DNA from: Actinomycetota bacterium
GTDB lineage: Bacteria; Actinomycetota; Thermoleophilia; Solirubrobacterales; Solirubrobacteraceae
Direction of reading: 5' to 3'
DNA: 64,000 nucleotides
Assembly: GCA_018268595.1 (NCBI GenBank)
Contig: JAFDWH010000013.1
Span: forward strand, 186,001-250,000
The position numbers and the translations under genes are program-made. Below, in pieces: positions 12,595 through 15,971 of this stretch (positions are counted from its first letter, which is position 1; each line of letters starts with the position of its first letter). The notes beneath the pieces are model-generated. The model was not told the DNA's origin. It did not search any database and saw only the letters and a program-made list of their open reading frames with translations.

Positions 12595-13691
12595 CCGCCT
12601 GGCGCGACGCCGACACCGAGCGGATGGCGGCGCTGCTGTGCGACTACTGCCTCGACGTGCAGCCGGGTCAGCAGGTGCTCGTGCGCTCGACGACGCTCGC
12701 GGCGCCGCTGCTGCGCGCGCTGCACGCGGCGCTGCTGGAGCGCGACGCCTGGCCGCTGCTGCGCGTCGAGCTGCCGGGCGTCGAGGAGGACTTCCACGCG
12801 CTCGCGCGCGACCGCCAGCTCGACGCGTTCGGCTCGATCGCCGAGGCGGAGGCGGCACAGGCGGACGCGTTCCTGACGATCCAGGCGCCGTTCAACACGC
12901 GCGCGCTGGCGGACGCGGACCCGCAGCGGATCGCGCGCCTCGCGCGCTCGCGCGCGCCGCTGACGGAGCTGCGGATGCGCAAGCGCTGGTGCGGGACGCT
13001 GTGGCCGACGCCGGCCGGCGCGCAGCAGGCGGGGATGAGCGAGGACGCGTTCGCGGCGTTCGTGCGCGGCGCGCTGTTCCTCGACCGCGACGACCCGGCG
13101 GCGGCGTGGCGCGAGCTGGGCGCGTTCCAGGCACGGCTGGCGGAGCGCCTGAGCGCGGCGCGCGAGCTGCGGATCGAGGCGGAGGGCACCGACCTGACGC
13201 TGCGGGTCGACGGGCGCACGTGGGTCAACAGCGACGGCAAGCGCAACATGCCGAGCGGCGAGGTCTTCACCGGGCCGCTCGAGGACAGCGCGAACGGCAC
13301 GATCCGCTTCACGGTGCCGTCCTCCCCGCGCGGCGTGGCGGTCGAGGACGTCGAGCTGACGTTCCGCGACGGCGAGGTCGTCGCGGCGCGCGCCGCGCGC
13401 GGGGACGAGTACCTGCAGCGCACGCTCGCGACCGACGCGGGTGCGCGCCGGCTCGGCGAGATCGGCATCGGCACGAACCGCGGGATCGACCGCCCGATCG
13501 GCGCGATCCTGTTCGACGAGAAGATCGGGGGCACCATCCACCTCGCGCTCGGCCGCTCCTATCCGGAGACCGGCGGCGTGAACCAGTCGGCGGTCCACTG
13601 GGACCTGATCTGCGACCTGCGCGACGGCGGGCGATTGACGGCGGACGGCGAGGTCGTCGAGACCCACTCTGACGCAGGGGCTTTCGAGTAG
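12591..13691 (+). CDS. M29-family aminopeptidase (AmpS-like)
   Basis: 366 residues of the thermophilic M29 metallo-aminopeptidase family. Landmarks: CDYCLDVQPGQQVLVRS at the N-terminus, LTLRVDGRTWVNSDGKRNMP, the metal-binding NMPSGEVFTGP, FDEKIGGTIHLALG, and the C-terminal ETGGVNQSAVHWDLICDL. The Glu, His and Asp of these segments bind the two-metal centre. It releases N-terminal residues from short peptides in the cytoplasm. GTG 12591 is fixed by the GTGA overlap with the previous gene. The last codons (13681-13691) overlap the first copy of the 11-bp repeat set described next. Confidence 0.9.
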   Translation: MTAWRDADTERMAALLCDYCLDVQPGQQVLVRSTTLAAPLLRALHAALLERDAWPLLRVELPGVEEDFHALARDRQLDAFGSIAEAEAAQADAFLTIQAPFNTRALADADPQRIARLARSRAPLTELRMRKRWCGTLWPTPAGAQQAGMSEDAFAAFVRGALFLDRDDPAAAWRELGAFQARLAERLSAARELRIEAEGTDLTLRVDGRTWVNSDGKRNMPSGEVFTGPLEDSANGTIRFTVPSSPRGVAVEDVELTFRDGEVVAARAARGDEYLQRTLATDAGARRLGEIGIGTNRGIDRPIGAILFDEKIGGTIHLALGRSYPETGGVNQSAVHWDLICDLRDGGRLTADGEVVETHSDAGAFE

Positions 13692-13774
13692 GTTTCGAGT
13701 AGCGGCGCCGCGATCGCTTGTGTCATCGGGGATCGTGCCGCTACTTGCAACCTACTCTAAACAGTTTAGAGTAG
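13681..13774. promoter_or_regulatory. Repeated 11-bp half-sites and palindrome before the AlbA_2 regulator
   Basis: Tandem CTTTCGAGTAG (13681-13691) and GTTTCGAGTAG (13692-13702), then a degenerate CTACTTGCAAC (13741-13751) immediately followed by a perfect 23-bp palindrome, CTACTCTAAAC-A-GTTTAGAGTAG (13752-13774), which ends 4 bp before the ATG at 13779. All copies fit one half-site, CTACTCTMAAC or its reverse complement. This looks like the operator of an autoregulated gene; the palindrome would cover the ribosome-binding region. Confidence 0.7.
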
Positions 13775-13778
13775 ATGC

Positions 13779-15200
13779 ATGAGTCCTCCCGGAGTCGTCG
13801 AGCGAGCCCTCGCCGAGCCGACCGCTCGCGTCGCCCGTGAGCTGCTCGCCGCCGAGGAGGACCAGTGGTTCGACCGCAAGTCCGCGCGCATCAAGCCGCG
13901 GGCGCTGGCGGACGCGCTCGTCGCCTTCGCCAACGCGGACGGCGGCGTCATCGTCGTCGGCCTGTCCGACGGACGCGTCGAGGGAACCGACTCGCTCGGT
14001 CGCGCGCGGAACGACCTCGTGCAGGCGGCCTTCGACTTCTGCGTCCCGCCGGTGCGCGCCGACCACCGGCTCGTCCCGTGCATGAACGACGCTGGCAGAC
14101 CGGACCACCTGCTCGTGCTCGACGTGCGGCCGACCGAGGGCGCCGTGCACGCCACCAGACGCGACGAGGTCTTCCTGCGGGTCGGCGACGAGAACCGCAG
14201 ACTGACGTTCGCGCAGCGTCAGGAGCTGACGTTCGACCGCGGCCCCGTGACGTACGAGGCCCGTCCGCTGCCCGGAGCCTCCCGCGACGGCTTCGACGCC
14301 GAGCTGCTCGACCGCTACGTCACGGCCGTCGGCGCCTCGGACGCCGACCGGCTGCTGCAGGCCCGCGGCCTGCTCGCCGGGGACGAGGCCCCGAACGTCG
14401 CCGGGTGGCTCCTGTTCGGGGAGCATCCGCAGGCGCTCCTGCCTGAGGCGCATGTGCGCGTGCTGCGCTACCAGGGGAGCGAACGCGGCGCCGGCGCTCG
14501 GCAGCGACTGCTGTTCGACGAGCGGTGCGAGGGGCCGATCCCGCGAATGCTGGTCGAGGCGCGGGCACGCGTGCGCGAGGTGCAGCCGATGCGTCGCGCA
14601 CTCGGCGGCGAGGGCCGCTTCGAGGACGTCGCGCTCGTCCCCGAGGACGCCTGGCTCGAGGGTCTCGTCAACGCGGTGGTGCACCGGTCCTACAGCCTTG
14701 CCGGCGACCATGTGCGCGTCGAGGTGTTCGACGACCGCATCGAGGTCGCGAGCCCCGGCCGGTTTCCGGGGATCGTCGACCTCGCCGACCCGCTGACGGC
14801 CCCGCGCTTCGCCCGCAACCCGCGCATCGCACGCGTGTGCGCCGACCTCAAGTTCGGGCAGGAGCTGGGCGAGGGCATCCGCCGGATCTACGAGGAGATG
14901 CGACATGCGGGTCTGAACGACCCCGTCTACACGCAGAGCGCAGCCAGCGTGCGCCTGCTGCTGTCGGCGGAGCCGGCCGACCGCCGTCTCGACGCCCGGC
15001 TCACGCCCCAGGCCCGCAAGGTGACCGCGGCGCTCCGGGACGCCGGCCGTCTGAGCACCGGGGAGATCGCCGAGCTGCTGCAACGCTCGCGCCCTGCCGC
15101 GATCAGGGTGCTGAGAAAGCTGGAGGCCGCAGAGCTGATCCGTTGGGTCGGCAAGAGCCCGCAAGATCCGCGTGCGTATTGGGAGGTCGTGCGGCGGTGA
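13779..15200 (+). CDS. AlbA_2 (Schlafen-like) domain transcriptional regulator
   Basis: 473 residues. Residues about 18-135 are an AlbA_2 domain (EEDQWFDRKSARIKPRALAD, then ALVAFANADGGVIVVGLSDG), the COG2865 RecG-like regulators. The middle has an ATP-binding-like C-terminal module (LEGLVNAVVHRSYSLAGDHV, VEVFDDRIEVASPGRFPG, KFGQELGEGIRRIYEEM). The last 70 residues are a winged helix (ARKVTAALRDAGRLSTGEIA ... LLQRSRPAAIRVLRKLEAA). Such proteins are suspected DNA-binding regulators, some linked to defence or stress. Repeats on both sides of the gene suggest self-control and control of the next gene. Confidence 0.85.
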   Translation: MSPPGVVERALAEPTARVARELLAAEEDQWFDRKSARIKPRALADALVAFANADGGVIVVGLSDGRVEGTDSLGRARNDLVQAAFDFCVPPVRADHRLVPCMNDAGRPDHLLVLDVRPTEGAVHATRRDEVFLRVGDENRRLTFAQRQELTFDRGPVTYEARPLPGASRDGFDAELLDRYVTAVGASDADRLLQARGLLAGDEAPNVAGWLLFGEHPQALLPEAHVRVLRYQGSERGAGARQRLLFDERCEGPIPRMLVEARARVREVQPMRRALGGEGRFEDVALVPEDAWLEGLVNAVVHRSYSLAGDHVRVEVFDDRIEVASPGRFPGIVDLADPLTAPRFARNPRIARVCADLKFGQELGEGIRRIYEEMRHAGLNDPVYTQSAASVRLLLSAEPADRRLDARLTPQARKVTAALRDAGRLSTGEIAELLQRSRPAAIRVLRKLEAAELIRWVGKSPQDPRAYWEVVRR

Positions 15201-15215
15201 GGTCGCGGGTGCCTA

Positions 15216-15275
15216 CTACTCTCAACCTACTCTCAACCTGCATTTACAGTTGGCGTTAGAGCTGATTGAGAGTAG
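15216..15275. promoter_or_regulatory. Second cluster of the 11-bp half-sites
   Basis: CTACTCTCAAC occurs twice head to tail (15216-15226 and 15227-15237), followed 27 bp later by the inverted ATTGAGAGTAG (15265-15275, one mismatch). The inverted copy ends 15 bp before the ATG at 15291. The half-site is the same as upstream of the AlbA_2 regulator, so this is probably an operator for the downstream PP-loop gene. Confidence 0.65.
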
Positions 15276-15290: not shown

Positions 15291-15971
15291 ATGACCGCCG
15301 CCGTCCTCTGGTCCGGCGGCAAGGACTGCTTCGCCGCGGGGCTGCGGGCGGGCGCGCTCGACGACGCGCGCACGCGGCTCGTGACGTTCGTCCCCGCCGG
15401 CGAGCGGCCGGCGTTCCGCTGCCATCCGCTCGGCGTGATGCGACGGCAGGCGGCGGGCCTGGGGCTGCGACACGAGCTGGTCGCGATCGAGCGCGCGGAG
15501 TGGGAGGCGGCGTACGCCCGCGCGCTCGCGGCGCTGGCGGCGGACGGCGTGGAGCGGGTCGTCACGGGCGACATCACGCCGCAGCAGTGGCCGTGGCTGG
15601 CGACCGCCTGCGACGCCGCCGGCCTCGCGCTCGAGACGCCGCTCGCGACCGCGGACGACGCGGACGCCGGCGCGCTGCTCGACGAGCTTGCGGACGCGGG
15701 CGTCGAGGCGACGGTCGCGGGGATGCGCGCCGAGCACTACCGCGCGAGCTTCCTCGGCCGGCCGGTCAGCCGCGCGCTGCTCGCCGCGCACGACCTCGAC
15801 GACCCGGCCGCGTTCCACCCGTGCGGCGAGCGCGGCGAGTACCACACCGTCGTCACCGCGTTCCGCGGCAGGCGCTTCATCGCACACGACCCGGCGGCGT
15901 TCCCGCACGTCGAGCGCGACGGCATCTGGGCGCTTGGCTGGCCGCCCACCTACACGTCCGATTTCCACTAG
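15291..15971 (+). CDS. Dph6-like ATP pyrophosphatase (DUF71, PP-loop)
   Basis: 226 residues. The PP-loop SGGKDCFAAG (about 9-18) binds ATP pyrophosphate, and HPCGERGEYHTVV (about 178-190) is the second signature of the diphthine-ammonia ligase/DUF71 family. In eukaryotes and archaea Dph6 amidates diphthine on EF-2; bacteria lack diphthamide, so the bacterial enzyme must amidate or adenylate something else. The gene directly follows the AlbA_2 regulator, with repeated half-sites in the gap, and precedes the Ada-AlkA gene by 21 bp. Confidence 0.85.
   Translation: MTAAVLWSGGKDCFAAGLRAGALDDARTRLVTFVPAGERPAFRCHPLGVMRRQAAGLGLRHELVAIERAEWEAAYARALAALAADGVERVVTGDITPQQWPWLATACDAAGLALETPLATADDADAGALLDELADAGVEATVAGMRAEHYRASFLGRPVSRALLAAHDLDDPAAFHPCGERGEYHTVVTAFRGRRFIAHDPAAFPHVERDGIWALGWPPTYTSDFH

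What the first reader, a model, noticed from the sequence alone, without database searches (positions are those of the whole stretch)
13681..15275. AlbA_2 regulator gene framed by a shared 11-bp motif
CTACTCTMAAC or its complement occurs at least seven times, only in the 94 bp before the gene and the 60 bp after it. Upstream copies include a 23-bp palindrome at the start codon; downstream copies sit before the Dph6-like gene. This predicts autoregulation plus control of the PP-loop gene and gives a possible DNA target for a regulator family whose binding sites are poorly known.
Basis: partly seen in the sequence, partly recalled or inferred. Interest (0 to 1): 0.55.

Follow-up and report, generated by a model that had tools for sequence, protein, structure and literature searches.

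The report
Schlafen-type gene framed by repeat arrays
A bacterial gene of a probable phage-defence family carries predicted DNA binding sites on both sides, these sites stay with the gene at unrelated genome positions, and this makes its control and possible mobility directly testable.

Summary
The motif array is real and unique in its genome: all 7 matches to CTACTYKMAAY in 3.57 Mb lie here. Strictly, CTACTCTMAAC occurs four times; the rest are variants. In 80 homologous loci, half-sites lie upstream in 77 and downstream in 40 (4.6% of control windows), and the palindrome form upstream in 53. Upstream and downstream variants match within a locus (0 of 5000 permutations reach it), as expected if one protein reads both. 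The palindrome lies just before the start codon, so autorepression is likely but unproven. Control of the Dph6-like gene is not supported: the sites stay with the regulator, and in one relative the M29 and Dph6-like genes abut without it. The protein is SLFN_AlbA_2 + GHKL-type ATPase + MarR-like wHTH, an architecture described in print as a defence RNase. In 17 of 20 Corynebacterium loci the gene sits between long direct repeats. Distant relatives in Streptococcus and Fusobacterium have 10-11-bp arrays right after the gene. Best reading: an autoregulated, island- and prophage-borne Schlafen effector with iteron-like arrays. What the downstream array does, and whether the unit moves itself, is open.

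The parts
13681..13702 (-). two tandem half-sites, CTACTCGAAAC and CTACTCGAAAG, the latter overlapping the stop codon of the M29 peptidase gene
13741..13762 (+). two tandem half-sites 11 bp apart, CTACTTGCAAC and CTACTCTAAAC
13752..13774 (.). perfect 23-bp palindrome CTACTCTAAAC-A-GTTTAGAGTAG, predicted operator; the form is conserved upstream of homologues
13767..13772 (+). TAGAGT, -10-like hexamer inside the palindrome, 6 bases before the ATG (leaderless start predicted)
   Evidence: sequence; TANNNT at the right arm in 46 of 50 palindromic loci (no control run); inference
13779..15200 (+). SLFN_AlbA_2 (27-142) + HATPase_c_4 (309-394) + MarR-like wHTH (about 405-472) protein, 473 aa
15216..15237 (+). 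two tandem half-sites CTACTCTCAAC, 11 bp apart
15265..15275 (-). half-site CTACTCTCAAT
12600..13691 (+). M29-type aminopeptidase gene, left neighbour (start not settled)
15291..15971 (+). Dph6-like PP-loop gene, right neighbour; abuts M29 in one relative without the unit

Best explanation
The gene encodes a sequence-specific DNA-binding Schlafen-type protein that controls itself. Its C-terminal winged helix, as a dimer, reads CTACTNNAA half-sites. Bound to the 23-bp palindrome it covers the -10 region of its own leaderless promoter and keeps the gene off. The tandem half-sites on both sides, phased at about one helical turn, let more dimers load next to each other and perhaps bridge the two flanks around the gene, tightening repression or storing the protein. 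The AlbA_2 and GHKL-type domains are the effector and ATP switch, most likely a defence RNase as proposed for this architecture. Gene plus sites are inherited and transferred as one unit by prophages and genomic islands and have landed between unrelated host genes, here between M29 and the Dph6-like gene. Shown by computation: conservation, co-variation of the two flanks, one empty site, phage carriage. Inferred: binding by this protein, repression, looping, RNase activity, defence.
For: TACT-N13-AGTA upstream in 53 of 80 homologous loci and downstream in 12, against 3 hits in 587,919 control bases of the same loci. Half-sites upstream 77 of 80, downstream 40 of 80, control windows 104 of 2246. 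Up and down half-site variants agree within loci: overlap 0.513 against 0.176 permuted, 0 of 5000, n = 37. Residues 442 and 444, in the predicted recognition helix 438-450, rank 2nd and 3rd for association with half-site class. The first in-frame start lies 5 nt after the AGTA of the palindrome in 33 of 49 loci, and TANNNT overlaps or abuts its right arm in 46 of 50. MarR-like wHTH fold at 407-473, Z 11.2, rmsd 2.6, 66 aligned. Arrays directly follow distant homologues: 20 perfect 10-bp repeats in S. dysgalactiae, 15.6 in S. respiraculi. Phased pairs in 0 of 24 outer homologues of the same class. Phage carriage next to the integrase (Nymphadora) or a few genes from it (Squirty), and behind a LexA-type repressor, before an integrase, in S. 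respiraculi. Same architecture named as Schlafen RNase in BREX loci (PMC12839542, passages).
Against: No binding or expression data exist. Forty of 80 loci show no downstream half-site (a few are cut at contig ends), so the downstream array is not needed everywhere. The association of residues 442/444 with site class is confounded by phylogeny; residue 73, outside the wHTH, ranks first, and only 4 of the top 20 columns lie in the wHTH, which holds 14% of columns. No control was run for the TANNNT count. One Schlafen catalytic acid was not placed. PADLOC gives no match to a defence system of this architecture. A 30% homologue in Azospirillum has no visible array. The empty site rests on one genome.
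Confidence: 0.62

Rival explanations
1. The unit repeat-gene-repeat is itself a single-gene mobile element: the protein binds the arrays at both ends and promotes its own excision or integration, or is moved by a helper integrase.
For: Direct repeats of 44-208 bp flank the gene in 20 of 79 flank pairs, five of them (L037, L048, L050, L059, L064) target-derived rather than array. At some shared sites the two repeats of a genome are more alike than those of a relative, e.g. 77 of 77 within L187 against 86 of 104 (up) and 126 of 176 (down) between L186 and L187. At least 10 different neighbourhoods among 20 Corynebacterium loci by tblastx of flanks. Target-derived duplications enclose only this gene, with no room for an integrase: L050 46 bp, L037 61 bp and L047 38 bp of tRNA genes, L048 71 bp of tRNA end and terminator, L064 44 bp. 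Empty site in the same genus.
Against: No recombinase or transposase domain. Repeats are mostly direct, not inverted as in insertion sequences. No paired half-sites in the 400 bases after mutY in 29 relatives without the unit there; five had one weak half-site. No IMG/VR relative on a contig under 9.8 kb (five contigs). L189-L191 lack the downstream repeat. Over all 20 Corynebacterium loci the own downstream repeat is the best match in 10 only. tRNA-flanked cases also fit ordinary islands whose integrase was lost or acts in trans.
Confidence: 0.12
2. An iteron-type replication or partition module left over from phage-plasmids: arrays are origin or centromere repeats, the protein their binding protein.
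For: Helically phased tandem repeats plus an inverted-repeat operator is the layout of iteron Rep genes (recalled). Relatives on Streptococcus plasmids, one with phage genes. One of the lower wHTH matches is the pNOB8 centromere-binding protein (rank 23).
Against: No Rep or Par family in the Pfam scan. In Corynebacterium the copies lie between ordinary chromosomal genes.
Confidence: 0.1
3. A conventional regulator whose purpose is control of the adjacent Dph6-like gene.
For: Three half-sites lie in the 75 bp before that gene.
Against: Neighbours vary while sites stay; M29 and the Dph6-like gene abut without them in one relative.
Confidence: 0.06
4. The sites are bound by another, unlinked factor.
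For: Binding by this protein is not shown.
Against: Sites occur only at this gene in the genome and their variants agree on both flanks of the gene.
Confidence: 0.05

Closest known systems
Schlafen-family RNase fused to a minimal histidine kinase (GHKL) and wHTH, reported widely in BREX loci (PMC12839542, passages seen)
   Same: domain order SLFN_AlbA_2 - GHKL-type ATPase - wHTH
   Different: here a solitary gene between M29 and Dph6-like genes with its own flanking arrays; arrays are not mentioned in the passages seen
DIP2311 of Corynebacterium diphtheriae (PDB 3LMM)
   Same: best solved structural match, Z 23.5, rmsd 13.6, 340 residues aligned
   Different: 23% identity; function unknown in print (PMC8780604, one passage)
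MarR-family autorepressors
   Same: wHTH fold; palindrome near own start codon
   Different: extra AlbA_2 and ATPase domains, extra tandem arrays on both sides of the gene
Iteron-regulated plasmid rep genes (recalled)
   Same: phased direct repeats plus inverted-repeat operator
   Different: no Rep domain, chromosomal, arrays on both sides
Cluster N mycobacteriophage central variable region defence genes (PMC7542560, passages)
   Same: phage Squirty gene 31, 53% identical over 94% of the query, lies in the corresponding interval near a RelA/SpoT-like gene
   Different: no phenotype of this gene was found; that Squirty groups with cluster N is inferred

Membership tests
Schlafen-GHKL-wHTH defence RNase | SLFN_AlbA_2 domain | tested here: met
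   PF04326 E 3.9e-14; Schlafen structures match residues 1-152
Schlafen-GHKL-wHTH defence RNase | GHKL-type ATPase domain | tested here: met
   PF13749 E 4.1e-21
Schlafen-GHKL-wHTH defence RNase | C-terminal wHTH | tested here: met
   PF01047 24.8 bits, cut-off 24.6; fold
Schlafen-GHKL-wHTH defence RNase | catalytic acids of the Schlafen RNase | tested here: inconclusive
   E27 and K34 invariant in 68 sequences; D or E at 32 in the four of A1; third acid not placed; SLFN13 positions recalled
Schlafen-GHKL-wHTH defence RNase | RNase activity and phage defence | not testable with these tools
   needs assay
MarR-type autorepressor | palindromic operator over own promoter | tested here: inconclusive
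   palindrome near the start and -10-like hexamer conserved; promoter itself not mapped
MarR-type autorepressor | binding to the operator | not testable with these tools
   needs EMSA
Insertion sequence or transposon | terminal inverted repeats | tested here: not met
   flanking similarity mostly direct: above threshold 29 of 79 direct, 13 of 79 inverted, the motif itself being palindromic
Insertion sequence or transposon | known recombinase domain | tested here: not met
   Pfam scan
Iteron Rep / partition system | phased tandem repeats | tested here: met
Iteron Rep / partition system | Rep or Par family domain | tested here: not met
   Pfam scan

The most novel reading that the evidence does not exclude
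A self-contained mobile unit of about 1.6-2 kb, array-gene-array, whose Schlafen-ATPase-winged-helix protein binds the arrays at both ends, keeps them homogenised and drives its own movement into intergenic sites, tRNA genes and terminators, using no known recombinase fold; the same array-protein pairing is found in Actinomycetota, Bacillota and Fusobacteriota.
Probability: 0.12. Interest if true: 0.9.

Novelty: new variant of a known kind. Interest (0 to 1): 0.6.

Why it matters
It gives a predicted, lineage-matched DNA target for a widespread Schlafen-ATPase-wHTH family whose regulation I found nowhere described, and links it to array-forming sites that stay with the gene. A gel shift and a reporter test would show whether these effectors are held silent by their own operators, and the array-gene-array unit offers a concrete test of single-gene mobility.

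Tried and rejected
Plain regulation of the PP-loop gene: rejected as the reason for the downstream sites. Of 41 genomes searched for the Dph6-like protein, own included, 5 had a match; only G005 was seen with M29 next to it, and in G003 M29 was not found beside it (the other two weaker matches were not examined), so the empty site is one genome. Genome-wide regulon: no site elsewhere by the exact pattern. Insertion sequence: no transposase domain, repeats mostly direct. Solo repeats as scars: no paired half-sites in 400 bases after mutY in 29 relatives, five with one weak half-site; the TetR neighbour gave no close relative without the unit. Small viral contigs: none under 9.8 kb among five found. 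Known-defence assignment: PADLOC gives pAgo, Aga and CARF/CasR/Csa3 profiles only. A CTGACC[TA]G box is enriched (up 11, down 6 of 72 against 0.8% of 2094 control windows) but unexplained; shorter forms are weaker. tRNA-Ser case in Amycolatopsis: of 80 genomes searched 28 had some match; the 11 relatives read (L265-L275) hold the segment once in the stretch read, beside a tRNA-Ser call in 10 of 11; the right-hand copy could also be an older island junction.

Literature: searches with AlbA_2, Schlafen, COG2865, PF04326, HATPase_c_4, DIP2311, AAA_4/iteron and Squirty listed no paper on binding sites or flanking arrays of this family. Papers: passages of PMC7542560, PMC12839542 and PMC8780604; listings otherwise. 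bioRxiv is not held; a preprint on bacterial Schlafens is known to me only from a reference list.

Rows and caps: the 80 loci are the best 80 of 107 confirmed; one is titled Gemmatimonadetes, several only 'bacterium'. In the permutation test 41 loci (window included) had sites on both sides and 4 near-identical ones were dropped; 8 of 80 were dropped for the box and promoter counts. A2 holds 67 of 80 loci plus the window. Neighbours: 90 of 132 picks scanned, first 25 of 122 families shown. One search used 79 of 81 core loci; its outer set has start codons unset, so its upstream count is weak. The 20 Corynebacterium loci are 20 of the 30 returned. VIA-align listed no other near-full-length relative than DIP2311.

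Full report
Observation. Before the gene at 13779-15200 lie two tandem half-sites on the minus strand (13681-13702), one on the plus strand (13741-13751) and a perfect 23-bp palindrome (13752-13774); three half-sites lie between its stop and the Dph6-like gene. CTACTCTMAAC is exact four times; six with up to one mismatch, 0.26 expected. CTACTYKMAAY has seven matches in the 3.57-Mb genome, all here; in three relatives with close homologues, matches at the gene are 2 of 2 (G056), 2 of 3 (G054) and 1 of 2 (G002).

Protein. Pfam gives SLFN_AlbA_2, HATPase_c_4 and MarR. A model from a 68-row alignment (mean pLDDT 87.5) matches the uncharacterised DIP2311 (Z 23.5, rmsd 13.6, 340 aligned), Schlafens over residues 1-152 (Z about 10, rmsd 3.0-4.5, 122-135 aligned), and MarR-like wHTH at 407-473 (Z 11.2, rmsd 2.6, 66 aligned).

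Conservation. A scan of GTDB contigs kept the best 80 of 107 homologous loci, 68 to 44% identity, one 70% but cut short. TACT-N13-AGTA lies upstream (210 bases) in 53 of 80 and downstream (250 bases) in 12 of 80, with 3 hits in 587,919 control bases. Half-sites lie upstream in 77 and downstream in 40 of 80; 104 of 2246 control windows have one. Some loci are cut at contig ends (for example L031), so the downstream count is a lower bound. Half-site variants agree between the two flanks of a locus far beyond permutation (0.513 against 0.176; 0 of 5000; n = 37). Two recognition-helix positions, 442 and 444, are 2nd and 3rd in association with the variant; residue 73, outside the wHTH, is first, 4 of the top 20 columns lie in the wHTH (14% of columns), and shared ancestry is not removed.

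Promoter. Of 50 palindromic loci (from 72 loci left after dropping near-identical ones, plus the window), 49 have an in-frame start after the palindrome, in 33 of them 5 bases after its AGTA; in 46 of 50 a TANNNT overlaps or abuts its right arm, a count without a control. In the window this is TAGAGT at 13767-13772. A protein on the palindrome would cover the -10 region of a leaderless promoter. This is inference.

Context. In same-genus genome G005 the M29 gene (80% identical) runs into the Dph6-like gene (64%) with no AlbA_2 gene and no motif, so the unit was gained here or lost there; this is one genome, and G003 has the Dph6-like gene without M29 found beside it. Ninety immediate neighbours of homologues match 122 Pfam families, of which the 25 shown include Phage_integrase in four members. 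The family is carried by Mycobacterium phage Squirty and Gordonia phages such as Nymphadora, at 53 and 52% identity, next to the integrase in Nymphadora and a few genes from it in Squirty, with a palindrome kept upstream in both. The Squirty gene lies in the lysis-integrase interval near a RelA/SpoT-like gene; in cluster N phages that region carries prophage defence genes (PMC7542560, passages). That Squirty belongs with these phages is my inference.

Array-gene-array. Of 20 Corynebacterium loci examined, 17 have long direct repeats on both sides, built of tandem half-sites, often a TGACCTG-like box, and the palindrome; L189, L190 and L191 lack the downstream one. By tblastx of flanks they lie in at least ten different neighbourhoods. 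In six of 11 genomes that matched one repeat query, it occurred only at the gene; the other five gave no match. Within-genome repeats are more alike than those of relatives at some shared sites (L187 77 of 77 against 86 of 104 and 126 of 176; L196 96 of 101 and L197 102 of 106 against 162 of 182 and 172 of 189), but over the 20 loci the own downstream repeat is the best match in 10 only. Across 79 flank pairs direct similarity passes the shuffle threshold in 29 and inverted in 13; 20 have direct repeats of 44-208 bp. Duplications of target sequence (tRNA parts in L037, L047, L050; tRNA end and terminator in L048; gene end in L064) enclose just this gene.

Distant relatives. Homologues of about 30-33% identity in Streptococcus and Fusobacterium have arrays right after the stop codon: TAGGATACAG x 20 and TTTATTGTAG x 15.6 without a mismatch, CTAGTAACTTT x 3.6 at 82%. 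Of three viral contigs found with the Streptococcus protein, two show 10-bp arrays and one AGTAG remnants by eye. By a strict count that needs TACT or AGTA, phased pairs occur downstream in 4 of 9 further loci (four of the six Streptococcus, Fusobacterium and viral ones, none of three actinophage-type ones; S. respiraculi fails because its unit lacks that core), in 17 (up) and 20 (down) of 79 core loci, in 3 of 2548 control windows, and in 0 of 24 outer homologues of the same class. A 30% homologue in Azospirillum shows none.

Verdict. The best reading is an autoregulated Schlafen-type effector with its own iteron-like arrays, spread by prophages and islands. The architecture is described in print as a defence RNase (PMC12839542, passages); the flanking arrays were not found in print by the searches listed under Tried and rejected.

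Noticed in passing
L277 3908-4107; L276 3890-4045: Perfect 10-bp tandem arrays (20 and 15.6 copies) directly after the Schlafen-type gene on Streptococcus plasmids; perfect identity suggests recent expansion or active homogenisation.
   Followed up: partly
L034, about 840-1050 bases upstream of the gene: Two further 50-56-bp copies of the operator-like array upstream of the gene in one genome.
   Followed up: no
L037, L047, L050, L048 flanks: Parts of tRNA genes or a terminator duplicated on both sides of a stretch that has room only for this gene and no integrase.
   Followed up: partly
L061 and L067 flanks: Longer direct duplications (1.1 kb at 76%, 0.56 kb at 81%) flank the gene.
   Followed up: no
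flanks of L051, L053, L054, L095-L099, L104: Conserved TGACCTG-like box near the arrays, role unknown.
   Followed up: partly
G000:C31:12775-13347: Second, 36% identical Dph6-like paralogue elsewhere in the window's genome.
   Followed up: no
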